Virus record (IMG/VR): IMGVR_UViG_3300028007_000002
Coordinates: 1 to 61,501 of that record
DNA: 61,501 nt
Source: a virus
Reading direction: 5' to 3' (one strand)
Under the pieces are notes generated by a model. That model made no database searches, had not been told where the DNA came from, and saw only the letters and a program-made list of their open reading frames with translations. This document shows, piece after piece, positions 6,286-45,893 of this stretch. A program made the position numbers and the translations under genes. Position 1 is the first letter of the stretch, and each line of letters begins with the position of its first letter.

Positions 6286-7653
6286 ATGGACGAGATCACG
6301 CGAGCGCTTCAGGAGTTGAGGCGACGCCGGGCAGGCTATCAACTCTACTCGAACTACTACGAGGGCAACCATCGACTGACTTTTGCGACGGAGAAGTTCC
6401 GGAACACGTTCGGCAACCTTTTTCGGGAGTTCGCCGATAATTTGTGCCCGGCCGTGGTCGATGCCGTGTCCGACCGACTAAAGTTGATCGGCTTTGATGT
6501 GGAGGATGGGCCGGCCGGTGCAGCCGATGTGGCGTGGGAATTGTGGCAGGTCAATCGGATGGACGAACGCATGGGCGAGATTCATACCGAAGCTCTGATT
6601 GCCGGCGATGGGTATGCGATCGTCTGGCCCGATCCGCGAACAGGCCAACCAACCATCTATCCCCAGGACGGGACCTCGATGACGGTCCGGTACGATCCTG
6701 AAGTGCCCGGACACATCCTCTCCGCGGTCAAGGCGTGGCAGACGGAAGATGAATTCGTGCGGGTGACCTTGTACTTCCCCGATCGGATCGAGAAGTGGAT
6801 CACGCGATCGGCCTGTCCGGCGGGCTGGCCAGAATCAAGCCAAGCGTTTGTGCCTTACGAGGTGCCCGGGGAAGCGTGGCCGCTCCAGCACGACTATGGC
6901 CGGGTGCCGGTCTTCCACTTCGCCAACAACAGCCGGATGGGACGATCCGGCAAGAGCGAGTTAAAAGACGTTGTGCCCCTCCAGGACTGTTTGAACAAGA
7001 GTCTTTGCGACTTGATGGTTGCGCGAGAGTTTCTTGCTCTTCCGCAGCGGTATGCGACAGGGCTTCAGTTCGATATTGACCCGGAGACCGGGAAGCCGAT
7101 CCCCCTCTTTGTGCCGGGCGCCGATCGTGTCTGGGCGACCCAAAGCAAGGACGTGACCTTTGGTCAGTTCGAGGCGGCGGACCTCGGGCAGTTCATCCAA
7201 GAGCAGGACAGCTTCCGGGCCGAGATCGCCCGGGTGAGCCGGACGCCATTGCACTATCTGTTGCCCCAGAGTGGTGAGTTTCCGAGCGGGGAGGCCCTCA
7301 AGACGGCCGAGTCGCCGTTCTTGGCCAAGGTGATGAAACGGCAGACGGCTTTTGGGAATGTCTGGGAGGACCTGATCGGGTTTGCGCTCCAGATGGTGGG
7401 ACAGTCGGGGGTACGGCTCTCGGCGCTTTGGGAGGATCCGGCGCCGCGGTCGGAGAAGGACCAGGGCGAGGTTCTCCTGATCAAGAAGCAGATCGGCGTG
7501 GACGACGAGACCTTGCTCGGTGAGCTCGGCTACGCCCCCGAGCAGATCCGGGTGATGCTCGCTAAGAAGCAGGCAACTGCGGCCGAGGCTCAACGGACCA
7601 TGCTGCGCACTTTCGATCGGGGCGGTTCAGATCCGGATGAAGAAGTTGCCTAA
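6286..7653 (+). CDS. Portal protein (SPP1 gp6-like)
   Basis: A 455-residue portal. The N-terminus (YQLYSNYYEGNHRLTFATEKFRN cut into its elements YYEGNH and FRNTFG) and the central GVSRTPLHYLLP-like segment (ARVSRTPLHYLLPQSG) fit the SPP1 gp6 portal family, which forms the dodecameric ring used for DNA entry and tail joining. The C-terminal third is helical and charged. It follows the terminase by eight bases with a GAGGGGAC site upstream. Confidence 0.9.
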   Translation: MDEITRALQELRRRRAGYQLYSNYYEGNHRLTFATEKFRNTFGNLFREFADNLCPAVVDAVSDRLKLIGFDVEDGPAGAADVAWELWQVNRMDERMGEIHTEALIAGDGYAIVWPDPRTGQPTIYPQDGTSMTVRYDPEVPGHILSAVKAWQTEDEFVRVTLYFPDRIEKWITRSACPAGWPESSQAFVPYEVPGEAWPLQHDYGRVPVFHFANNSRMGRSGKSELKDVVPLQDCLNKSLCDLMVAREFLALPQRYATGLQFDIDPETGKPIPLFVPGADRVWATQSKDVTFGQFEAADLGQFIQEQDSFRAEIARVSRTPLHYLLPQSGEFPSGEALKTAESPFLAKVMKRQTAFGNVWEDLIGFALQMVGQSGVRLSALWEDPAPRSEKDQGEVLLIKKQIGVDDETLLGELGYAPEQIRVMLAKKQATAAEAQRTMLRTFDRGGSDPDEEVA

Positions 7654-9067: not shown

Positions 9068-9174
9068 TTCAGTTGGCCTTTCTCGCGGACCTCTGTCTGA
9101 TCTCCCTCTTGCTCGCGGTTCTGCGCTCTCTGCCCACTCCGGATCGTCATGCCAGATATCTACGACCTCGCTGA
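9064..9174 (+). CDS. Possible small membrane peptide
   Basis: A 36-residue frame with a GTG start overlapping the previous stop. Residues 3-20 are hydrophobic (QLAFLADLCLISLLLAVL), like one transmembrane helix, with a basic tail. It overlaps the start of the head protein by 26 bases. Confidence 0.3.
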   Translation: MIQLAFLADLCLISLLLAVLRSLPTPDRHARYLRPR

Positions 9175-11236
9175 CCAGCATCGTGCCGAACTGCTGCGCC
9201 GGGAGCAGGCTGCCGCCGGCGCGATGGTGCGCGCCTACGGTCTGGCCTGGCAGCGGATCGAGCGTGACCTGAACGCCCTTTCGCGGCAGATCGAGGACAC
9301 GCGATCACGCGGCGAGGAGATCTCGCCGGCGTGGCTGCTCCGTCGGGACCGGCTGACCGAACTTCAGCGGCAGACGGAGATCGCGGTCGACCAGTTCGCC
9401 GCGTCGGTCGATCACACCATCCAGCAGGAGCAGACACGGGCCATCGAGGCGGGGCGACGTCACGCCGGTCAACTGATGCAGGCCGCAGCGGGTGGCGGGG
9501 CCGAGCTCGTCGGTAATTTTGCTCAGGTGCCGACGGGGGCACTGACCACGATGGTGGGGATGCTGGGCAATGGATCCCCGCTCCGGTCGCTCCTGGATCA
9601 GTTCGGGCTGGCGGCGAGTCAGGCTGTGGGCGATGCGTTGATTGAGGGGCTGGCCATCGGCCAGAACCCGCGGATGATTGCCCGGCGAATCCGGGATGCC
9701 CTCGACGGGAACATGGTCCGGGCGCTGACGATTGCTCGGACGGAGACGCTTCGAGCCTATCGCGAAGCCACCCGACAGACCTACGCGGCGAACAGCCGGG
9801 TAGTGAAGGGGTGGATCTGGCACTGCGCGCTCGATCGCCGGAGCTGCGCACTGTGCGTGGCCATGCATGGGAAGCGGTTTGACGTTCAGGAGCGATTCGG
9901 CACGCATCCCAATTGCTTTCCGGCCGGGACTGTTGCGTCAGGTCCCAGAGCGGTAGGGAGTACTGAGCGGTGGTATGAAGGCGATCTTGTCGAAATAGAA
10001 ACTGCCAGGGGGCACCGGCTTTCCGTCACCCCGAATCACCCGGTACTGACGGCGAAAGGTTGGGTCGCGGCGGGATTCCTCCAAGAAGGTGACGATGTAG
10101 TCAGCAGCATCGGAAGTCAGGGGCCAATTCCGGGAATCGACCCAGATGATTATCAGGTTCCAGCCCTGATCGAGGAGGTAGCACGATCGGTCGGGGGTTC
10201 GACTCCGATGCGAGCCGTAGGCATGCCAACCGCCCCCGAAGATTTCCACGGCGACGGGATCGGCTCCAAGGTCCACGTTGTACGGACCAATGGCCTTCTG
10301 AGGCGTACTCTCAATCCCTCGCTCTTCCAACCACCTCTTGAGCAATTCCTCGGTCGAGGATACCCCCAGCCGCCGCTCTTCTCGGGTCTTCGCTGTTTTG
10401 CATCGTTCTTCGATCGTCTTGACTCGGCCTCGAACGGCGGCATGGGCTGCCTCCGTCAGCCGTCTGTTGTCCTCAGGGCTGCGTCGCTCGGCCATCAACC
10501 GGTTTGCCTCGACAGAGCCTCGGCGGGGAACCCCCGCTTCGCGGAGTCGAACTCCGATGACGTTGCGAGACACTCCGTACTCTTCAGCCAAAGCCTTTTC
10601 GGACTCTCCCGCCAAATACCGGGCGGAGATTTCCGGCATGGGCAGGGGGATGTAGGCACGTCTTCGAGCGCTCGCGCGTTCACCCGCCAGCAGGTAGCGA
10701 GCGGCCTTGTCACGCCACAAACCCCGGTCCTTGATAGCCTCGCGGAGTCGCTGCTCACTAATGTGAAATCGAGCAGAGGCGTTCTGGCAGCTTTCGCCGG
10801 CGATGTAGGACTGGATCGCATTCTCAAGATCAGCCGCCGAAGCTTTCGTGGGCATGTCTACAACCTCGAAACAACTGAGGGGTGGTACCACGCCAACGGT
10901 ATTGTAGTTCACAATTGTCGCTGCGCGATGATTCCGGAAACCCGGACCTGGGACGAGTTGGGCTTCCGGGGCATCGCCGAAACCTCGGTTCAGGTGGAGG
11001 CCGGCGCCGACTGGTTTGCTCGGCAGTCAGTCGATCTCCAGCGGGAGATTCTGGGGCCAACGAAGCTGGTTGCTTATCAGGGCGGGGCGATTCGGCTGGA
11101 GGATCTGGTTGGGGTGCGGCAGGATCCACGGTGGGGCATCACCCGCCACCAGTTGAGCCTGCGGCAGCTCCTCGGCCCGGCTGAAACCAATCGCTGGCGG
11201 GTTGCGGCCGGGCTTCCACCGCAGCATCCAGTTTGA
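9149..11236 (+). CDS. Minor head protein (SPP1 gp7/Mu gpF-like) interrupted by an intein
   Basis: A 695-residue precursor; removal of the 334-residue intein gives about 361 residues. The N-terminal extein is helical, then RMIARRIRDALDG and ARTETLRAYREATRQTYAANS match the Phage_Mu_F head-morphogenesis domain. The conserved metal-binding end of this domain is split: CALDRRSCALC...GTHPN before the intein and CRCAMIPETRTWDELGF after it. Inteins commonly insert at such conserved sites. The C-extein nucleophile is Cys. The protein joins portal and capsid shell in this family. Splicing is required for a functional product. Confidence 0.9.
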   Translation: MPDIYDLADQHRAELLRREQAAAGAMVRAYGLAWQRIERDLNALSRQIEDTRSRGEEISPAWLLRRDRLTELQRQTEIAVDQFAASVDHTIQQEQTRAIEAGRRHAGQLMQAAAGGGAELVGNFAQVPTGALTTMVGMLGNGSPLRSLLDQFGLAASQAVGDALIEGLAIGQNPRMIARRIRDALDGNMVRALTIARTETLRAYREATRQTYAANSRVVKGWIWHCALDRRSCALCVAMHGKRFDVQERFGTHPNCFPAGTVASGPRAVGSTERWYEGDLVEIETARGHRLSVTPNHPVLTAKGWVAAGFLQEGDDVVSSIGSQGPIPGIDPDDYQVPALIEEVARSVGGSTPMRAVGMPTAPEDFHGDGIGSKVHVVRTNGLLRRTLNPSLFQPPLEQFLGRGYPQPPLFSGLRCFASFFDRLDSASNGGMGCLRQPSVVLRAASLGHQPVCLDRASAGNPRFAESNSDDVARHSVLFSQSLFGLSRQIPGGDFRHGQGDVGTSSSARAFTRQQVASGLVTPQTPVLDSLAESLLTNVKSSRGVLAAFAGDVGLDRILKISRRSFRGHVYNLETTEGWYHANGIVVHNCRCAMIPETRTWDELGFRGIAETSVQVEAGADWFARQSVDLQREILGPTKLVAYQGGAIRLEDLVGVRQDPRWGITRHQLSLRQLLGPAETNRWRVAAGLPPQHPV
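9914..10915 (+). other. Intein in the head protein
   Basis: Codons 256-589 of the head gene. Block A: CFPAGTVASGP with Cys1. Block B: HRLSVTPNHPVLTAKGW with the TxxH-type NHP motif. Blocks F and G: FRGHVYNLETTEGWYHANG, IVVHN, then Cys of the extein. This is a complete Hint splicing domain. The linker (about residues 60-300 of the intein) has no recognisable LAGLIDADG or HNH motif on this strand, although it stays open throughout. It contains PTAPEDFHGDGIGS, a motif I recall from related phage Hint proteins. The linker DNA encodes a Vsr-like endonuclease on the other strand. Confidence 0.9.
9938..10855 (-). CDS. Vsr-like (EDxHD-type) homing endonuclease, antisense within the intein
   Basis: A 305-residue protein encoded entirely inside the intein DNA on the opposite strand. 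The N-terminal 100 residues hold helix-turn-helix modules (SCQNASARFHISEQRLREAI and SEKALAEEYGVSRNVIGVRL). Near residues 190-265 is a Vsr-like nuclease fold: LLKRWLEERGIESTPQKAIG, YNVDLGADPVAVEIFGGGWH, then HRSRTPDRSCYLLDQGWN and IIIWVD. The EIFGGGWH and H.SRTPDR elements are typical of phage and metagenomic Vsr-like homing endonucleases. The ATG at 10855 has a GAGG eight bases upstream; an in-frame ATG at 10912 has no such site. The enzyme would spread the intein. Its nuclease motif lies exactly opposite the intein codons for TAPEDFHGDG. Confidence 0.82.
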   Translation of the reverse strand: MPTKASAADLENAIQSYIAGESCQNASARFHISEQRLREAIKDRGLWRDKAARYLLAGERASARRRAYIPLPMPEISARYLAGESEKALAEEYGVSRNVIGVRLREAGVPRRGSVEANRLMAERRSPEDNRRLTEAAHAAVRGRVKTIEERCKTAKTREERRLGVSSTEELLKRWLEERGIESTPQKAIGPYNVDLGADPVAVEIFGGGWHAYGSHRSRTPDRSCYLLDQGWNLIIIWVDSRNWPLTSDAADYIVTFLEESRRDPTFRRQYRVIRGDGKPVPPGSFYFDKIAFIPPLSTPYRSGT

Positions 11237-11306
11237 GGGCGAGGGCGAACGATGAACCAGTGCGCCGTCGTCACCCGCATTGACTGTGGCCCTCAATTTC
11301 AAACAG

Positions 11307-11351
11307 CCTGCGCGGAACTCGTTTCCCCCTCGGATGAGCGGCCTATCATGG
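11307..11351 (+). promoter_or_regulatory. Copy 3 of intergenic repeat CCTGCGCGGAAC-N24-CTAnnaTGG
   Basis: CCTGCGCGGAAC at 11307-11318 and CTATCATGG at 11343-11351. TATCAT is a good -10 match; GTTTCC 17 bases before it is a poor -35. It lies in the gap between the head protein and scaffold genes. A 48-codon frame (11252-11398) crosses this gap but has only a weak ribosome binding site, so the gap is better read as regulatory. Confidence 0.5.
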
Positions 11352-11405
11352 CGCCTGATGCGCGACCATTCATCCGGGAAGCATCCGGGAAGCACTGAGG
11401 GAAAC

Positions 11406-11990
11406 ATGCCTGACGAGCAGACGGGCCAGGAGCCCAACCCGACCGGCCAGGAGCCGACCGGGACCGCCGGCAGTGAGTCCACCGCCACGACGCAAACCAC
11501 GCCGTCAAGCGCCGGAGCCGAAACGCAGCAATTCACGGCTGAGTACGTGTCGCAGCTGCGTCGGGAAGCCGCCGAGAACCGCACCAAACTCCGCGCCCTG
11601 GAGGCGGCGGAAAAGAAGCGGCAGGAAGCGGAGATGACCGAGTCGCAGAAGCTTCAAGCGAGGGTGACCGAACTGGAGGCCAATCTGACGGCGCGGGAAG
11701 CCCAGTTGCGGGAGACAACCCTCCGCACCGCGGTGACCGCCGCAGCCATCGAGGCAGGCGCCAGCAACCCGAGCGTGCTCGTGCGGCTGATTGACCCGAG
11801 TGCCGTCGAGTACGCCGAAGACGGTAGCCCGAAGAACCTGAAGAAGCTGGTCGAGGGGCTCAAGGCCCAGGTGCCTGCCCTCTTCAAACCCACGACACCG
11901 GGCGGGTCCGCTGATGCCGGCGCGTCCGGCAAGGCCGGCGGTGCCCCGTCGATGAATGACCTGATCCGCCAGCGGGCAGGTCGCTCCTAG
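11406..11990 (+). CDS. Capsid scaffolding protein
   Basis: A 194-residue protein with the scaffold layout: a low-complexity N-terminus rich in Gln, Pro, Thr and Gly (residues 1-35), a long charged coiled coil (residues 45-105, LRALEAAEKKRQEAEMTESQ and similar), then VTAAAIEAGASNPSVLVRLI and LVEGLKAQVPALFK, the conserved C-terminal part of this family. It guides assembly of the capsid shell. The ATG at 11406 has GAGGGA six bases upstream. The major capsid gene follows. Confidence 0.88.
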   Translation: MPDEQTGQEPNPTGQEPTGTAGSESTATTQTTPSSAGAETQQFTAEYVSQLRREAAENRTKLRALEAAEKKRQEAEMTESQKLQARVTELEANLTAREAQLRETTLRTAVTAAAIEAGASNPSVLVRLIDPSAVEYAEDGSPKNLKKLVEGLKAQVPALFKPTTPGGSADAGASGKAGGAPSMNDLIRQRAGRS

Positions 11991-12064: not shown

Positions 12065-13012
12065 GTGCCGTACAACAACATCACCGATCGCTCTGATGCC
12101 TCTGCCCTGATTCCCGAGGAGGCCGCGTCGCAGATCATTCAGGATCTGCCGAAAACCTCTGTCGCCCTGACCCGGTTCCGTCGGGTGACCATGAGCCGCA
12201 AGCAGCAGCGCATGCCGGTTCTTTCGGCCCTGCCGACCGCCTACTTCGTGGAAGGCGATACCGGTCTGAAGCAAACCACCGAACAGGCTTGGACCAACAA
12301 GTACCTGAACGCCGAAGAGTTGGCCGTCATCGTACCAATTCCGGAAGCCGTGCTCGATGACACCGAGTTCGACATGTGGACCGAGATCCGGCCGCGACTG
12401 GTTGAAGCTCTCGGGATCGCCGTCGATGGCGCCGTGCTTTTCGGCACCAACAAGCCGGCGAGCTGGCCCGACGCGATCGAAGATGGTGCGGCCGCGGCTG
12501 GCAACGCCTTCACTCGCGCCAGCGTGGCCAACAAGGACCTGGTTCACGACATCAACAAGTGCATGGGCTTGGTCGAGGCTGACGGTTTCGACGTGAACGG
12601 TTTCCTGGCGCGGAAGAGCCTGAAGGCCGACCTCCGAGATCTGCGGGACAGCAACGGCCAGCCGATTTATTCTGCCAGCCTGACCTCGCCGACGCCGATG
12701 ACGGTCTACGCCGAGCCAGTGCAGTACGTCGACAATGGCGCCTGGGATAACACGCGGGCTGATCTCATCTGCGGCGATTTCACGCAGGGGATCATGGCGG
12801 TCCGGCAGGATCTCCAGTGGAAGCTGCTGAGCGAGGCCGTGATTCAGGATAACACCGGCGCCATCATCTACAACCTCGCCCAACAGGATATGGTCGCCCT
12901 GCGCGTGACCATGCGGGTGGCTTTCCAAGTCGCTAACCCCACCACGCGCCTGAACCCCAACGGGAGCACCCGCTACCCGTTCTCGGTTCTCCGGCCGGCC
13001 GGCTTCGTCTAA
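12065..13012 (+). CDS. Major capsid protein (HK97 fold)
   Basis: A 315-residue capsid subunit. The order of elements fits the HK97-like Phage_capsid family: an N-terminal SQIIQDLPKTSVALTRFRRV, the E-loop-like segment with TTEQAWTNKYLNAEELAVIVPIPEAVLDD, the spine helix (EIRPRLVEALGIAVDGAVL), FGTNKPASWP, and the A-domain NANGQPIYS-like region (DSNGQPIYSASL). No long N-terminal delta domain is present, consistent with a separate scaffold. GTG start with GAGGACAG upstream. Confidence 0.92.
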   Translation: MPYNNITDRSDASALIPEEAASQIIQDLPKTSVALTRFRRVTMSRKQQRMPVLSALPTAYFVEGDTGLKQTTEQAWTNKYLNAEELAVIVPIPEAVLDDTEFDMWTEIRPRLVEALGIAVDGAVLFGTNKPASWPDAIEDGAAAAGNAFTRASVANKDLVHDINKCMGLVEADGFDVNGFLARKSLKADLRDLRDSNGQPIYSASLTSPTPMTVYAEPVQYVDNGAWDNTRADLICGDFTQGIMAVRQDLQWKLLSEAVIQDNTGAIIYNLAQQDMVALRVTMRVAFQVANPTTRLNPNGSTRYPFSVLRPAGFV

Positions 13013-23792: not shown

Positions 23793-25231
23793 TGGGCTGG
23801 CTGGCGCTCCCCACGATCCAGACGGGTCAGATCCTCTCGGCCGAACATTGCAACCGGATCGCCGCAAATCTGGACTACCTGCTGACACTTGAGGCGTACG
23901 GATCGCCGCTCTCCCGGGTCTGGCGCTACCAGGCCAGCAATTGGCTGCATTCCGGCGGCGCCGATCAAAACTACCAGATGGCCTGGCAGGGGTGGATCCG
24001 TTATTGGTCGCCGACGCTCTTCTGGCGCTACTACGTCTACCGAACCAGCGAGCAGTCGTGGGATGCGGGCTACCCCTCACCGGCGTACCAGACCACGAAT
24101 AGCTACTGCGCGACCGGATCGTCCTCCTACGTGAAGATCCAGATCGACACGACGGGCGCCGGCGGCTGGGTGGACCTGCTCGGGGAAACAACCTACACGA
24201 CTGAGGGACGGATCACGGGATCGGCCTATCTGGTTGGTCTCGCCCTGACGCAGGGGAATGTCTATGGAATCCGCGTGCTGGCCAAAAACGTCGGCCTTTT
24301 CACCGAAGCGATCTATCAGGGCGGCGGTGTGCTCGGCCGGACCTGGCAGACACTCCCGACGGTCACAGATGGCGCGGCGAGCACGGCGGCGCACTTTAAT
24401 GACCGCTGGCACAACAACCTTGAGTATCTCCGCGAGGGCCTCTCGGGGCCGTGGGCACCGACTGGCGGGATGCTGGAGGGCGAGGTCGTCGGAACCACCC
24501 ATCCAGCCTACCGTGCCTGGACACGGCGGGTTGGGGATTATCTGGCCTACCGGTTCGGTGCCCGGAATACCGATCTCGGTGGGGCCGCCAACACCTTCGC
24601 GCTCGAGGTGAACGGTCAATCGGTCGCCACTGTGACCACGGATGGGGGCAAGAGCGGTAGCACCTACAACCCCGATTACGTGATCGCCGAGGGTCTCGCC
24701 AACCTGAACGCACTCGCCACGCCACCCGCGAAGGGAGCGTGGTACGAAGTCACGCTCCGGCGCACCGTGAATCCGGGCGGCTCCGGCAACGGTGCGCGGC
24801 CGGCCGTGAACTACCTGTTCGAGGTGAACGGCGCACCCTCACTTACGGGCTGGACCACTCCAGCCACCTGGGGCCACGGTGACTATCCCGCCGGCCAGCC
24901 GGTTTCGGATCGGCTCAGGGTGTGGAATGACGACCTGACGACGCTCAAGAGTCGCGTGGACGGGGCGATCAGTTTCGCGGTGCGACAGCAGTCGGATCAG
25001 TATCTGTATCGCCGCGGCGACGTCCTGCTCTGGGACGGGACCAACGTTCAACTCTACTGGGCGGGCGGCCGGGCCGGCGCCCCGACGCAGGGCGGCAGTG
25101 TCTACCTCAACAACGGGCCAGGGAGTATCGACCTGCGGGCGCTCAGTCGCCTAACCTACGGCGGCTACTACTACCTGGCCGGGCCGCCAAATCAAGCCGC
25201 GACGATTCGGTACGGAATGGAGGTGCTGTAG
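23792..25231 (+). CDS. Tail protein, beta-rich, probable minor tail or fibre-associated protein
   Basis: A 479-residue protein rich in Gly, Ser, Thr, Tyr and Trp. Two similar segments, LPTIQTGQILSAEHCNRIAA near residue 5 and LPTVTDGAASTAAHFNDRWH near residue 190, suggest an internal duplication. Jelly-roll-like sequence follows. It lies between the tip protein and the large fibre gene. The ATG at 23792 overlaps the previous stop (TGATG). Confidence 0.55.
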   Translation: MGWLALPTIQTGQILSAEHCNRIAANLDYLLTLEAYGSPLSRVWRYQASNWLHSGGADQNYQMAWQGWIRYWSPTLFWRYYVYRTSEQSWDAGYPSPAYQTTNSYCATGSSSYVKIQIDTTGAGGWVDLLGETTYTTEGRITGSAYLVGLALTQGNVYGIRVLAKNVGLFTEAIYQGGGVLGRTWQTLPTVTDGAASTAAHFNDRWHNNLEYLREGLSGPWAPTGGMLEGEVVGTTHPAYRAWTRRVGDYLAYRFGARNTDLGGAANTFALEVNGQSVATVTTDGGKSGSTYNPDYVIAEGLANLNALATPPAKGAWYEVTLRRTVNPGGSGNGARPAVNYLFEVNGAPSLTGWTTPATWGHGDYPAGQPVSDRLRVWNDDLTTLKSRVDGAISFAVRQQSDQYLYRRGDVLLWDGTNVQLYWAGGRAGAPTQGGSVYLNNGPGSIDLRALSRLTYGGYYYLAGPPNQAATIRYGMEVL

Positions 25232-28200
25232 TGGCGAAGGCCGATCGGCTCCGGCGGATTGAGTTCACACACGCGACGGGACGCGGAACCGCGGCCGGCG
25301 GCGCTGTGCCGGCCTTGGTGTCCACGGTCGCCGGATCCACGGACGCCGAGACAGTCAACGGATTCCGGGCCAGTGGTACGCCCCAGCCGAACACCCTGTT
25401 GGCCCTGGGGCCGGATGCCAAGTTCCCAGCCAGTGTCCTCCCGGATGCCACCAGCAGCACGCCCCAGAATTTCCCGGGGGGGCTCCGCACGGCGTTCATG
25501 GAGGTATTTCGCGCCGAATACGGTGCTGGTGGATCCCCCTGGATCAACGCCATCGACAACTGGCGCGGGGGCGGCGCCAAGACCGGAATCCGCTATGAGG
25601 TGCTCGGGACCGCCGGCACCGATTTCGCGCTCAACTCGGCCCTGATGGAACTTTGGGTCAACGGTGCGAGCCGGTTCAAGGTGCAGCAGGACGGTGCAGT
25701 CAGCGCTGTGAGCTTTAATGGCCTGACCGGGCTGGCGTCTGCAGTCACGACGCAGGCCATCGGGGACGCGGCGGTCACCGGCACCTCGACGCTGACGGCG
25801 CGGCAGGACCACCGGCACGCGATGCCCGGATTCGGCTCCCCGGCGGCACTCGCCATCGGATCTGCCAGCAGCAACGGCACGGCGACCACGCTGCCCCGCT
25901 CGGATCACGTCCACGCGATGCCGGCGTTTGCCACCCCGACAGTCACCCTCGGCACGGCAGCGGCGGCCGGCACGGCGACCACGCTGCTCCGGAGTGACGC
26001 GACCATCGTGGCGTTTGACGGCACGGCGCCGACGACCATCACGCCCAACGCGGCGGCGGCCACTGGATCGGTGGCGTTCGCGGCCCGCCGTGATCATACT
26101 CACGCCATTGCGACGGCCGCACCGGGTGCCAACAGCGTGAGCTTGGCCGCCTCGACCGAGGGGACCGGCAACAATTTCGCCCGCGCCGCCCACACGCATC
26201 AGCTTGATGTGAGCATTGCCCCGACCTGGACGGGCCTGCACACCTGGAGTCAGGTGGCCACGTTCAACAATCGCCTGGATATTTCGGGGGCGAACCCCCT
26301 CCGGTTGGGTGGGGATTGGTCGCTGAACCGGAGCGCCGCGAATGTGGCAGTCTTGGGGACCGGGAACGCCCTCCAAAGCACGACGTTCGTGACCGGCTTT
26401 GAGGGGAAAGGCTGGTCAATCGACGCGAACGGGCGGGCCGAGTTTCAGGACGCCTATATCCGAGGTAGCCTCTACGCGACGACCTTCACCTACAAGGAGA
26501 TCAACGCGCTCAACGGCTATTTTATGGTCACGAACGTCAGTCCCTTGGCGGACGATCTCACCGCTGGCCAGACGACGATTGATATCGAGGACCCCGTCCT
26601 CCGAGGCAACACGACGGACGGCAACAGTTACGTCGTGTTGCAACTGCTCGGGGCCATTCCCACGTCCGGTGGCGGCCCGCTGGTGGTTCAGCGGGAGGAG
26701 ATGCGGATCACGTCCTACGTTGGGACAGTGACCGCGACCAACGGGAAGACGGGCTATCGCTATAACGTCAACCGTGCTCAGAACAACACGACCGCCTATG
26801 CTTGGAAGAAAAAGACGGCGGTCGTTGAGTGGGGCCGGATCGGCGGATCGGCTGCCAATAAAGGCGGCTGGGTGACGCTGGTCGGCGGAAGCACGGACGT
26901 GGAGGGGCCCTACGTCCGGGTGAGTCACCGTTATGGAGACAATCCGACCGACTATCGGGTTCGTGTCCATTTCGGCCAGATGTTCGGCGTTCTCGGGGAG
27001 ACGCTGACCACGCGCTGGGGTTTTGCGGTCGGCAACGATCTCGGGGCTGGTGCGCCGGGCAGTGGCGCGACGTTTCTGGCCTATGACAACGCGAACGGCC
27101 TGAGGATCCAAAACGCGGACCTGAGCCTCTACAACGGGGCCGCTCAGACGGTCGGGATTCAGTCCTCCGGCCGAGCGCGGTTCGGCTCGAATATTGGGGC
27201 CGTGTCCACGACGGCGCTACTCGTCTCACCGGCCGGCGAGACCTACAACAGTGAGGCATTGGCGGCCGGCGCGCTCCTGCTCGGAGATAACTCGGCCGGC
27301 AAGCCGAACCTGCTGTGGGATCCGGTCACCGCCCGACTGCGCCTCCGACACGGCACGAGCGCGGGGGTGCAGGTCGGGGATCTGAACGGCGTTTACGGTT
27401 ATGCCGCTCAGACGTTCGGCGTCGGCGTCGGAACGGACGCCAATAGCAGCGCCAACCTGACGATCGATCCGACCAACGGCTTTCGGATCATTCGACGGGA
27501 CGGCGCCGGAGTCCGTACGTCGGTTGGGCAATGGGCGACTGACGGATCGATCACGGTCGGGCAGATCAAGGGCGGGCGCAGCCATGTTCTGATCACCGAT
27601 ACCGGGGATATCAAGCTGCGGACATCGGTCACCGACACAACCCACCGAGATCGGATCAGCCTGTCCGCTGCCGGCGTGCTGACCATCAACAACAGCGCGG
27701 CCAACGCGGTCTTCACCTTCGATTCCTCAAGCGGGGCCGAGTTCACCCTGCCGCTGACCCTCGGCTCCGGCGGTGGCATCTATCAGGGGACCGGCAGTTT
27801 CGCCTCACCGACCACGGGCCTGAAGGTCTGGAATGACGCTGGAGTTGGGCGGATCGCCGGTTTCAACGAAGGCACGATCCAATGGACGGCCGATACGGAC
27901 GGGAAGTTGAAGGCCGGCGCCGGTGCTGTGACGCTGGATAGCACCGGCATTCTGATGGCGTCATCAAGTGGCGTCGCAAACACGCTGGGGTTTGGTTTAC
28001 GGTCGGACTCTAGCCTCGTCGGGCGCATCTGGGCATTTCGGTCCACACTATCTGCCACTGATGACGACCTATCAATTCGTCGAACTCGCCATGACAACGC
28101 GAACTATTACACCCAGATCACGATCCGCGAGGGAGTAGTTCGGCTGTGGGACAACGGCGCGGTCTTCAGGGATGCCCACATCCAATTGGCGAACACAGCG

Positions 28201-29145
28201 ACGGCGCCGCTCTACGCGGGCGGTAGCTCCAATGTGAACTCCGGCCTCTATTTTCCGGGCATCGCTGAGGTCGGAGTCTCAGCAGACGGCACGGCGATCG
28301 CCCGCTTCACGGCTTCTGGCCTGACCGTCACCGGATCAACGACGGTCAGCGGCGGCCTGAATCTCGGCTCGGCGACGGGCGCGGCGGCCGGCGAGCTGAG
28401 AACGTCAGGCAATGCCACACTCAATGCCGAGTTGGTCTTCACGGGCACCTCGGCCACCTACGTGCGCCCGAGCGCGTTCACGTCGAACTATCAGTCGGTC
28501 TTCAAGAGCTACACGAACGCTGCTTTCTCCGACACCAACGGCGGTGGCGCAATCACCGTCCATGCCCTCGATACGGCAGGGTCGCCGGTCGCCGGCAACG
28601 GCTCGATCAACTTCTACGCCTACGGCCTCGGCTCGGCGGGGGAGTCGGGTGCCCACCGCTGGCGCACTCGGTCGGGGGCCGGCGCCTTTACCGAGCGGAT
28701 GCGCCTTTTCAGTGGCGGCGGGCTAGCAATCGGGACGATGACCGATCCAGGGGCCGGCGGGCTGTTCCTCTCGGGGAACACGGTGTTCGGGGCAGCGGCG
28801 GCTGGAGCGGGCAAAATTCGCCTGCCGAATAACCAGGGCATCTACTGGCGCAACGCGGCGAACAATGCCGATTTTGGGATTGTCTTCAACACGGACAACA
28901 ATTTCTCGTTCGGGGCGGGGATCGAGATGAACAATCAATCGATCTCCAACCTCAGCAGCCTCGTGACGGACACGACCAACGGGACGCGGATCGCCACCGC
29001 ATCGACCCAAAAGCTCGGGTTCTTCGGGGCGACGCCGGTCACTCAACCCACCGTGGCAGCGGCGGCCAGCGACCTGAACACGGTGATTACGCTGGCGAAT
29101 AGCCTCCGGACACTGGTTCGGGACCTTGGCTTGGCCTACTCCTAG
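25231..29145 (+). CDS. Large tail fibre protein
   Basis: A 1,304-residue fibre. Residues 175-330 contain four repeats ending in a metal-type HxH motif: TARQDHRHAMPGF, LPRSDHVHAMPAF, AARRDHTHAIATA, FARAAHTHQL. Such HxH repeats coordinate iron along phage fibre trimers. The rest is Gly/Ser/Thr/Asn-rich beta repeat (LGSGGGIYQGTGSFASPTTG), with the typical fibre phrase YAGGSSNVNSGLYFPG near residue 995. The C-terminal end is a short helix. No chaperone domain with the S74 peptidase motif was seen. Host-receptor binding is inferred. GTG start in a TAGTG overlap. Confidence 0.8.
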   Translation: MAKADRLRRIEFTHATGRGTAAGGAVPALVSTVAGSTDAETVNGFRASGTPQPNTLLALGPDAKFPASVLPDATSSTPQNFPGGLRTAFMEVFRAEYGAGGSPWINAIDNWRGGGAKTGIRYEVLGTAGTDFALNSALMELWVNGASRFKVQQDGAVSAVSFNGLTGLASAVTTQAIGDAAVTGTSTLTARQDHRHAMPGFGSPAALAIGSASSNGTATTLPRSDHVHAMPAFATPTVTLGTAAAAGTATTLLRSDATIVAFDGTAPTTITPNAAAATGSVAFAARRDHTHAIATAAPGANSVSLAASTEGTGNNFARAAHTHQLDVSIAPTWTGLHTWSQVATFNNRLDISGANPLRLGGDWSLNRSAANVAVLGTGNALQSTTFVTGFEGKGWSIDANGRAEFQDAYIRGSLYATTFTYKEINALNGYFMVTNVSPLADDLTAGQTTIDIEDPVLRGNTTDGNSYVVLQLLGAIPTSGGGPLVVQREEMRITSYVGTVTATNGKTGYRYNVNRAQNNTTAYAWKKKTAVVEWGRIGGSAANKGGWVTLVGGSTDVEGPYVRVSHRYGDNPTDYRVRVHFGQMFGVLGETLTTRWGFAVGNDLGAGAPGSGATFLAYDNANGLRIQNADLSLYNGAAQTVGIQSSGRARFGSNIGAVSTTALLVSPAGETYNSEALAAGALLLGDNSAGKPNLLWDPVTARLRLRHGTSAGVQVGDLNGVYGYAAQTFGVGVGTDANSSANLTIDPTNGFRIIRRDGAGVRTSVGQWATDGSITVGQIKGGRSHVLITDTGDIKLRTSVTDTTHRDRISLSAAGVLTINNSAANAVFTFDSSSGAEFTLPLTLGSGGGIYQGTGSFASPTTGLKVWNDAGVGRIAGFNEGTIQWTADTDGKLKAGAGAVTLDSTGILMASSSGVANTLGFGLRSDSSLVGRIWAFRSTLSATDDDLSIRRTRHDNANYYTQITIREGVVRLWDNGAVFRDAHIQLANTATAPLYAGGSSNVNSGLYFPGIAEVGVSADGTAIARFTASGLTVTGSTTVSGGLNLGSATGAAAGELRTSGNATLNAELVFTGTSATYVRPSAFTSNYQSVFKSYTNAAFSDTNGGGAITVHALDTAGSPVAGNGSINFYAYGLGSAGESGAHRWRTRSGAGAFTERMRLFSGGGLAIGTMTDPGAGGLFLSGNTVFGAAAAGAGKIRLPNNQGIYWRNAANNADFGIVFNTDNNFSFGAGIEMNNQSISNLSSLVTDTTNGTRIATASTQKLGFFGATPVTQPTVAAAASDLNTVITLANSLRTLVRDLGLAYS

Positions 29146-44144: not shown

Positions 44145-45893
44145 CTAAGCAGTTGGCTGAACAGAGGTGATATCCTGCCGGACGTACCAATACTCACCGA
44201 CCCGAATGGCCTTCAGCCGGCCTTCGGTGACCCTCCGCCAGAGGCGGCCATACCCGATGCCCGTCTGGCGGGCGAGCTCTGGTAGGCTCAGCAGACGGTA
44301 CTGTGTGCTCAGTCGGAACGAATCAATGTGATTGCAGTCATTGCGGTAATACGAAGTGTCCGCAATACCAGTGGAGCTTTCACCGGCCGGCCGCCTAAAT
44401 CGGTAGCGCGGGTTCAAATGGTACTCGCCGCGCCGACTGGGTTCCACGATCACCTTCTCGACCAGCAACTCCATGAGCATCCGCTTGGTCTCCGGCGTGG
44501 CCTTGTCAGCCTTCCCCTGCAACGCGGCGAGGAGTTCAGCCACCCCGCGGATTCGTGCCTTCTCCTCCTCTCGCTGAGCCCGCGCGTTCTCCAAGACCAG
44601 TTTGCGGCCGGCCAGATCATCCCGCTCCCGAGCTGAGGCGATCAGTTGCGCCTCCCCCTCAGCCTCTGAGATGAGCCCCTTCCTAATCAGCGAAATGACA
44701 CGGGAGCGCTCAGCCTCCACCCGCTGGAGTGCCCGGCTCAGGGCATCAAGCTCGGCCTCTCCTTCCGCGCCGGTCAGGTCATTGACCTGCGTCATCAGTT
44801 TCGCGACCAAGTCGCCTGGCCGATCAATCCAGTCCCGAATGTCCGACCAGACGACGTCCTCGACGAGTTCCACCCGGACATCGGGATTCGGACAGCGGTA
44901 CTGACCACACCGGTAGTAGGCGATGTGATTCTGGTTCGTCTGAGTCAGGCCAGAGTACCGCCGACCACAGATACCGCAATCAATCAGGCCGCGCAGGAGG
45001 TACAGCCGCTTGGCGTTCCTTGATGACATTTTCCAGTTCAGCGGGCGCAATTCCTGGGCTCGATCCCACGTCGCCCGATCGAGGATCGCTGGGACCTCCT
45101 GAGTAATGGTCTGTTTGCTCTTACTCTGGCGGCCGATGCGGCGCTCGCCCATATACGTCGGGTTCTTCAACATCATGAGGACCCGTGTGTGATCCCAGTG
45201 GTCTACGAGCTTGATCCGCTTGCTAGTGATCCCTCGCCGGGTGCTTTGTGTCGCCACTCCCAATGCATTCAGCCGCTCAGCGATGGCATAGGCGCTGAGC
45301 CGCTCTTCGTTGTACCAACGGAAGATCTGCCGAACGATCTCCGCCTCTTCTTCATCAATGACTAACTTCTGATCAAGGACCCGATAACCGAGGGGAGCCC
45401 GACCTCCTGTCCAGTATCCCTCCCGGGCCTTTCGCCGACGGCCAAGGCTGGAGCGCTGGACGATAGAGTCGCGCTCATAGGCGGCCACCATGGCCAAGAT
45501 GCCCATGACGAACTCGCCGAAAGGATTGCTCGTGTCAAAGGGTTCCGTGAGGCTCCGAAATGCAACGCCGCAGCGTTTGAGTGCATCGTGGGCCGACAGG
45601 ATAATCATGCCCGTTCGGCCGATGCGGTCCAGTCGGTAGACGACCACCTGCTCGAACTGGCCCGCCTTGGCATCGGCGAGGATGCGGGCGCCGGCCGGCC
45701 TCTGCTCGATGGGAATCGTGCCGGGAACGCCGTCGTCGAGGTATGTCCCGACGATCGTCATCCCGAGTGCAGGGCAGATCGCATTGGCCGCTTCGATCTG
45801 GTTCTGGATCGACTCACGTTCGATCTGATCTTCGGACGAGACGCGGGCATAGAGAGCCACCCGCGGGGATGCGGGTGGTGATACACTGGACAC
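44145..45893 (-). CDS. Large serine recombinase with C-terminal excisionase-like domain
   Basis: A 582-residue protein. Residues 10-150: resolvase catalytic domain with YARVSSEDQ (nucleophilic Ser), VYRLDRIGR and AYERDSIVQRSS. Residues 170-290: recombinase domain (GRAPLGYRVLDQKLVIDEEE, NPTYMGERRIG). Zinc ribbon: LIDCGICGRRY then YRCGQYRCP. Coiled coil near 390-460. Unusual C-terminus: residues 530-580 (LSLPELARQTGIGYGRLWRR, GRLKAIRVGEYWYV) are a MerR/HTH_17-type excisionase-like DNA-binding domain. It may integrate the phage, and its own fused domain may control direction. AGGAGG lies seven bases before the GTG start. Confidence 0.9.
   Translation of the reverse strand: MSSVSPPASPRVALYARVSSEDQIERESIQNQIEAANAICPALGMTIVGTYLDDGVPGTIPIEQRPAGARILADAKAGQFEQVVVYRLDRIGRTGMIILSAHDALKRCGVAFRSLTEPFDTSNPFGEFVMGILAMVAAYERDSIVQRSSLGRRRKAREGYWTGGRAPLGYRVLDQKLVIDEEEAEIVRQIFRWYNEERLSAYAIAERLNALGVATQSTRRGITSKRIKLVDHWDHTRVLMMLKNPTYMGERRIGRQSKSKQTITQEVPAILDRATWDRAQELRPLNWKMSSRNAKRLYLLRGLIDCGICGRRYSGLTQTNQNHIAYYRCGQYRCPNPDVRVELVEDVVWSDIRDWIDRPGDLVAKLMTQVNDLTGAEGEAELDALSRALQRVEAERSRVISLIRKGLISEAEGEAQLIASARERDDLAGRKLVLENARAQREEEKARIRGVAELLAALQGKADKATPETKRMLMELLVEKVIVEPSRRGEYHLNPRYRFRRPAGESSTGIADTSYYRNDCNHIDSFRLSTQYRLLSLPELARQTGIGYGRLWRRVTEGRLKAIRVGEYWYVRQDITSVQPTA

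What the first reader, a model, noticed from the sequence alone, without database searches (positions are those of the whole stretch)
9914..10915. Intein whose homing endonuclease is encoded antisense to the splicing-domain linker
The Hint intein is open from Cys1 to the terminal Asn on the + strand. On the - strand, wholly inside it, lies a 305-residue Vsr-like endonuclease gene with its own ribosome binding site. The catalytic-type motif EIFGGGWH is encoded by the same bases as the intein motif TAPEDFHGDG. I recall DFHGDG as recurrent in phage Hint proteins; if so, that apparent conservation may be the shadow of the antisense nuclease, and antisense nested homing genes may be widespread and overlooked. 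A nested gene would need its own promoter and would be expressed separately from the late head gene.
Basis: partly seen in the sequence, partly recalled or inferred. Interest (0 to 1): 0.92.

Follow-up and report, generated by a model that had tools for sequence, protein, structure and literature searches.

The report
Intein hiding its nuclease gene antisense
A self-splicing insert in a phage head gene carries, on the opposite DNA strand of the same bases, a separate gene for the DNA-cutting enzyme that probably spreads it, and hundreds of phage sequences share this two-strand arrangement, so one stretch of DNA has to work as two unrelated proteins at once.

Summary
Window 9914-10915 (+) is a 334-aa Hint intein in a MuF head protein. 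Inside it, codon for codon on the other strand (9938-10855), lies a 305-aa nuclease: HTH repeats plus a PD-(D/E)XK domain whose best structural match is homing endonuclease I-Bth0305I. In 150 related loci (GC 40-69%) the host frame opposite the nuclease is free of stops in 148; 3 stop-shadow codons were seen where 691 were expected. A free-standing relative has 10 such codons. The nuclease's start codon, ribosome-binding site and a TATAAT-like -10 are written inside the conserved Hint C-terminal block, with biased synonymous codons. In close pairs the variable codon position flips to the nuclease's wobble base. Empty sites, and inteins about 97-98% identical in roughly 70%-identical genes, show mobility. 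Splicing, cleavage and transcription are inferred. A 2025 preprint on actinophage inteins of 'non-canonical architecture', which I could not read, may already describe part of this.

The parts
9149..9913 (+). N-extein of the MuF/SPP1 gp7-type minor head protein
   Evidence: Pfam PF04233 2.8e-15, PHROGs; lies between portal 6286-7653 and scaffold 11280-11990 / major head protein 12065-13012
9914..10915 (+). Hint intein, 334 aa, Cys1 ... His-Asn | Cys+1
   Evidence: PF14890 8.5e-9, TIGR01445/TIGR01443 intein ends; profile hits solved inteins; AlphaFold Hint core pLDDT >90 at both ends
10028..10048 (+). Hint block B TPNHPVL (intein residues 39-45), opposite nuclease motif YRVIRG
   Evidence: alignment A2; + conservation far above nuclease requirement
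10238..10258 (+). EDFHGDG motif of the + strand, opposite nuclease PVAVEIF (presumed catalytic Glu204 = complement 10244-10246)
10274..10771 (+). 166-codon linker: kept open, no detectable + amino-acid selection, predicted disordered
   Evidence: two-way selection map; pLDDT <50 for residues 118-285
9938..10855 (-). antisense endonuclease gene, 305 aa plus stop: N-terminal HTH repeats, C-terminal Vsr-like PD-(D/E)XK domain
   Evidence: PF18741 and HTH families in 20 of 30 members; profile hits 3r3p I-Bth0305I 5e-5; Foldseek top hit 3r3p; model pLDDT 88.6
10853..10855 (-). ATG start of the endonuclease, complement of the His codon (CAT) in the Hint motif GHVYNLE
   Evidence: family: CAT 74 / CAC 15 against 202 / 294 in exteins
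10864..10867 (-). Shine-Dalgarno GAGG, complement of the Asn-Leu codons of VYNLE
   Evidence: SD-like in 95 of 109 leaders, 33.6 expected from the + amino acids
10901..10906 (-). -10-like hexamer TACAAT, complement of ATT GTA in GIVVHN, 45 nt before the ATG
   Evidence: TATAAT 57 and TACAAT 18 of 125 leaders, mostly 45 nt upstream; ATA, GTA, ATT codon bias p = 3e-13, 4e-7, 3e-16. No -35 consensus
10916..11236 (+). C-extein of the MuF protein (CRCAMIPE...)
   Evidence: empty-site relatives continue ..HPNC RS..

Best explanation
This is a mobile intein whose homing endonuclease is not an in-frame domain but a separate gene on the antisense strand, codon-aligned with the Hint frame. The late head-gene message is translated straight through the intein, and the Hint domain splices itself out of the MuF protein (inferred from intact motifs). 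A second transcript, started on the other strand from a -10 element inside the Hint C-terminal block, is translated from an RBS and ATG in that same block into an HTH plus PD-(D/E)XK nuclease (signals shown; transcription inferred). The nuclease cuts intein-less MuF alleles at the HPNC|RC codons, and repair copies the intein in (mobility pattern shown; cleavage inferred). The shared DNA is selected on both strands: nuclease plus Hint in the end regions and the catalytic segment, nuclease only (with the + frame kept open) in the middle.
For: Both frames are open in 148 of 150 loci while the other two + frames average 8.4 and 14.8 stops. TTA+CTA+TCA codons in the nuclease: 3 against 691 expected. 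A free-standing relative, Acinetobacter phage IME285, has 10 in 224 codons and 10 opposite stops. Two-way selection map. In 15 close pairs, substitutions peak at codon position 3 in exteins (0.42 per site) but at position 1, the nuclease wobble, in the linker (0.289 against 0.144). Start, SD and -10 statistics. The Hint subtype never lacks the nuclease in the best-scoring loci: 80/80, 74/74 (found by N-Hint alone) and 72/72 (found by the EDFHGDG DNA pattern). Homology to I-Bth0305I. Exact empty sites and a second insertion site in the same gene, also with the antisense nuclease. Intein 98.2% identical where the N-extein is 71.6% identical.
Against: No experiment. No -35 consensus, and only 46 of 114 loci have TG next to the -10; the window itself has no promoter-scan hit. 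Codon bias near the intein end could have another cause. The role of DFHGDG in the intein is unknown, and AlphaFold does not place it. Only the best 80 hits per scan were kept, so distant nuclease-free relatives may have been missed.
Confidence: 0.85

Rival explanations
1. The antisense ORF is a composition artefact of a GC-rich gene; only the intein is real.
For: In flanking genes of related loci, 240-codon stretches are open in this register 20-42% of the time at GC 0.6-0.7, and the window has other long antisense ORFs.
Against: Same arrangement at GC near 0.40, where 0 of 43 control stretches are open; homology to known nucleases; conserved start, RBS and -10; wobble reversal.
Confidence: 0.01
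2. The nuclease is the real gene and the + frame is merely tolerated: the MuF gene is broken or not spliced, and the insert is a selfish nuclease that avoids stops so that the head protein is still made with an unspliced loop (as proposed for the ShiLan insertion).
For: The middle 166 codons show no + amino-acid selection and are predicted disordered.
Against: Strong + selection on Hint blocks, Cys1, NHP, VYNL and HNC; Hint core predicted at pLDDT >90. Stops appear opposite the nuclease in L093, where the Hint has decayed.
Confidence: 0.06
3. The antisense nuclease is real and expressed but serves interference between phages or superinfection exclusion more than homing.
For: Homing nucleases in phages can also cut competitors (general knowledge); the target gene is essential.
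Against: Exact empty sites, sporadic presence (471 Guernseyvirinae-type records hold most of the N-extein, about 70 hold most of the intein) and intein/extein discordance fit homing. The two roles are not exclusive.
Confidence: 0.08

Closest known systems
Canonical mobile inteins with an in-frame homing endonuclease domain (e.g. PI-SceI, PI-MtuI)
   Same: Hint splicing domain, exact insertion in a conserved motif, nuclease carried by the insert, horizontal spread
   Different: Here the nuclease is a separate gene on the other strand with its own RBS and start, overlapping the Hint code rather than being spliced out with it
I-Bth0305I / Vsr-like homing endonucleases (3r3p)
   Same: Catalytic domain homologous by profile and fold
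   Different: That enzyme is intron-encoded (title and molecule name); here two HTH domains precede the nuclease and the gene lies antisense in an intein
ShiLan-type out-of-frame HNH insertions in phage methylases (PMC11855218)
   Same: A homing nuclease hidden in another frame of an insertion that leaves the host frame open
   [quoted passage not shown] HNH type; no Hint domain and no detectable RBS; here antisense, with Hint, RBS and -10
Antisense homing endonuclease genes in nuclear rDNA group I introns (PMC9548176)
   Same: Nuclease gene antisense inside a splicing element, proposed separate transcription
   Different: Eukaryotic RNA intron in rDNA, so the host strand encodes no protein and no dual coding is needed; His-Cys nuclease
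Gosselin, Arsenault and Gogarten 2025 preprint, 'Actinobacteriophage Inteins: ... Non-Canonical Architecture' (doi 10.1101/2025.01.02.630785, cited in PMC11855218; not held)
   Same: Covers actinophage inteins, so could include the Gordonia MuF inteins found here
   Different: Unknown: text not available; must be read before any priority claim

Membership tests
Intein (Hint protein-splicing element) | N-terminal Cys/Ser, block B TxxH, C-terminal HN, Cys/Ser/Thr +1 | tested here: met
   Cys1, TPNH, VVHN|C in the window; invariant C1, T39, H42 in alignment A2. Penultimate His is Ser, Lys or other in part of the family
Intein (Hint protein-splicing element) | intein-less alleles with exact deletion | tested here: met
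   K1ind3 and SETP3 against TU03
Intein (Hint protein-splicing element) | protein splicing activity | not testable with these tools
   needs expression
Mobile intein with an in-frame HEN domain | nuclease domain in the intein reading frame | tested here: not met
   nuclease only on the antisense strand; + linker predicted disordered
I-Bth0305I / Vsr-like homing endonucleases | homologous PD-(D/E)XK catalytic domain | tested here: met
   profile E 5e-5 to 3r3p, Foldseek rank 1 (E 0.02, prob 1.00); PF18741 in 20 of 30 members
I-Bth0305I / Vsr-like homing endonucleases | site-specific cleavage of the empty insertion site | not testable with these tools
   needs enzyme assay; mobility pattern is only indirect
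ShiLan-type out-of-frame homing insertion | same-transcript alternative frame, no splicing domain | tested here: not met
   opposite strand, Hint domain present
Antisense group I intron HEG | self-splicing RNA intron as carrier | tested here: not met
   carrier is read through in frame as protein with Hint motifs

The most novel reading that the evidence does not exclude
A widespread class of phage inteins in which one DNA stretch is selected as two unrelated enzymes on opposite strands: the intein's splicing blocks and a homing endonuclease, including its catalytic segment. The nuclease's promoter, RBS and start codon are written inside the Hint C-terminal block, so the intein carries its own antisense expression unit; and this has not been described before.
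Probability: 0.5. Interest if true: 0.92.

Novelty: new variant of a known kind. Interest (0 to 1): 0.82.

Why it matters
It appears to be a large natural case of codon-aligned, two-strand dual coding in which both proteins have known folds, so the constraints of overlap can be measured residue by residue. It gives a way for an intein to express its nuclease separately from the late host gene. Genome annotation misses it, because gene callers reject antisense ORFs: nearly all the phage records examined annotate only the head protein, and the few that mark an antisense ORF or an intein do not name a nuclease. The conserved + motif DFHGDG, of unknown role, and the overlap of Hint block B with the nuclease tail are directly testable.

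Tried and rejected
Shadow hypothesis for DFHGDG: tested by codon resampling and rejected. Composition artefact: tested with flanking-gene controls and a free-standing relative, rejected. Single-sequence + intein search of viral contigs found nothing; an alignment query did. Window promoter scan found no sigma-70 pair; -35 profile showed no peak near 17 nt. PDB search with the single nuclease sequence gave only chance hits; the profile search worked. E. coli genomes held no match to the Aaphi23 intein. Literature: no description of an antisense nuclease in an intein found in the open-access library; the most relevant preprint is not held.

Full report
WHAT IS THERE. Window 9149-11236 (+) encodes a 695-aa MuF/SPP1 gp7-type minor head protein between portal and scaffold/major head protein genes. 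Residues from Cys at 9914 to Asn ending at 10915 form a 334-aa Hint intein. On the other strand, 9938-10855, is a 305-aa ORF in exact codon register with the intein: sense codon position 3 faces antisense position 1.

THE ANTISENSE PROTEIN IS A NUCLEASE OF A HOMING FAMILY. Members match REase_MTES_1575, DUF559 and several HTH families. A family profile matches 3r3p, the I-Bth0305I catalytic domain (E 5e-5), and the DUF559-like 3hrl. The AlphaFold model (pLDDT 88.6) has 3r3p as its first Foldseek hit (E 0.02, prob 1.00). The conserved motif is PQKAIGPYNxD..VAVEIFGGxWH.

BOTH FRAMES ARE KEPT OPEN. In 150 loci from viral contigs, phage records and bacterial genomes (a few near-identical), the codon-aligned host frame has no stop over the whole nuclease match in 148; the other two frames average 8.4 and 14.8 stops. 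The exceptions are L026, where the match overran the end of the head gene, and L093, where the Hint is decayed. Codons TTA, CTA and TCA, whose complements are stops, occur 3 times in the nucleases; 691 were expected from flanking genes of the same loci. A free-standing relative beside the MuF gene of Acinetobacter phage IME285 has 10 such codons in 224, a natural negative control. Openness alone is weak evidence at high GC, which is why the family-wide test matters.

SELECTION ON EACH STRAND. Holding one protein fixed and resampling its codons gives the conservation expected on the other strand (145 loci). The nuclease is conserved beyond the intein's demands along nearly its whole length. The intein is conserved beyond the nuclease's demands at Hint N (9974-10093), at LIEDVA and FHGDG (10154-10273) and, more weakly, near the C-terminal block (10772-10831), but not in 10274-10771. 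That free segment coincides with the part AlphaFold predicts as disordered (residues 118-285). Among 15 close pairs, substitutions peak at sense position 3 in exteins (0.42) and at sense position 1, the nuclease wobble, in the linker (0.289 against 0.144).

EXPRESSION SIGNALS WRITTEN IN THE HINT BLOCK. The nuclease start is the complement of the residue before VYNL: His CAT 74, CAC 15 (ATG, GTG) against 202 and 294 in exteins; 92 of 126 loci have a start there, and 17 more have ATG two codons on. An SD-like sequence is present in 95 of 109 leaders against 33.6 expected. A TATAAT-like hexamer lies mostly 45 nt upstream (TATAAT 57, TACAAT 18 of 125), made by biased Ile and Val codons in GI(I/V)xHN. 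In the window these are ATG 10853-10855, GAGG 10864-10867 and TACAAT 10901-10906. No -35 element stands out, so transcription is an inference.

MOBILITY. K1ind3 and SETP3 carry the intact MuF gene without insert; TU03 has exactly the intein added before the same Cys. KMB36 has a related intein with antisense nuclease at another Cys of that gene. TU03 and nctD30 share a 98.2% identical intein but only 71.6% identical N-exteins; demigod 96.7% against 69.5%. About 70 records hold most of the intein against 471 that hold most of the extein. In Rctr197k the element sits in what reads like a dCMP deaminase gene.

HOW GENERAL. Searches by whole intein, by N-terminal Hint only and by an EDFHGDG DNA pattern returned loci all of which (80/80, 74/74, 72/72 with Hint) hold the antisense nuclease. 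Only best-scoring hits were kept, so nuclease-free relatives further away are not excluded.

THE SHADOW IDEA. DFHGDG is not just a shadow. At these columns the nuclease leaves choice (for example V/I, or either Glu codon), yet + D, G, H, F are nearly fixed, and the motif is gone in L004 and L093, where the Hint is decayed and the nuclease intact. The nuclease motif YRVIRG faces TPNHPVL, where excess conservation is on the + strand. What DFHGDG does in the intein is unexplained.

NOVELTY. Known relatives are in-frame HEN inteins, out-of-frame HNH insertions (PMC11855218) and antisense HEGs in rDNA introns (PMC9548176). Papers on KMB36 and Salmonella phages note the intein only. A preprint on actinophage inteins with 'non-canonical architecture' is cited there but not held; it may overlap with this finding, so I do not claim priority.

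Noticed in passing
L191, L192 (phages K1ind3, Schulenburg): Intein-less phages carry an extra ORF right after the MuF gene (annotated HNH endonuclease in Schulenburg, hypothetical in K1ind3) that is absent from intein-bearing TU03.
   Followed up: partly
L192, L193 (Schulenburg, KMB36): The HPNC insertion site is changed to HFGC, possibly a resistant site.
   Followed up: no
L464 (Acinetobacter phage IME285) 455-1348: Free-standing nuclease relative next to the MuF gene on the opposite strand, with many stops in the opposite frame; escape from or ancestor of the nested form.
   Followed up: partly
L080 (Virus Rctr197k): The element interrupts a gene that reads like a dCMP deaminase but is annotated as head morphogenesis.
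   Followed up: no
L004: Intact nuclease, decayed Hint, and repeated MuF-end sequence (CRCSLG) on both sides: a decayed intein that kept its nuclease.
   Followed up: partly
window 10238-10258: EDFHGDG is selected on the + strand but falls in a region AlphaFold does not place; role unknown.
   Followed up: partly
window 44148-45893 -: Large serine integrase: the phage is probably temperate.
   Followed up: no
window 25231-29142 +: 1304-aa ORF without any PHROG match.
   Followed up: no
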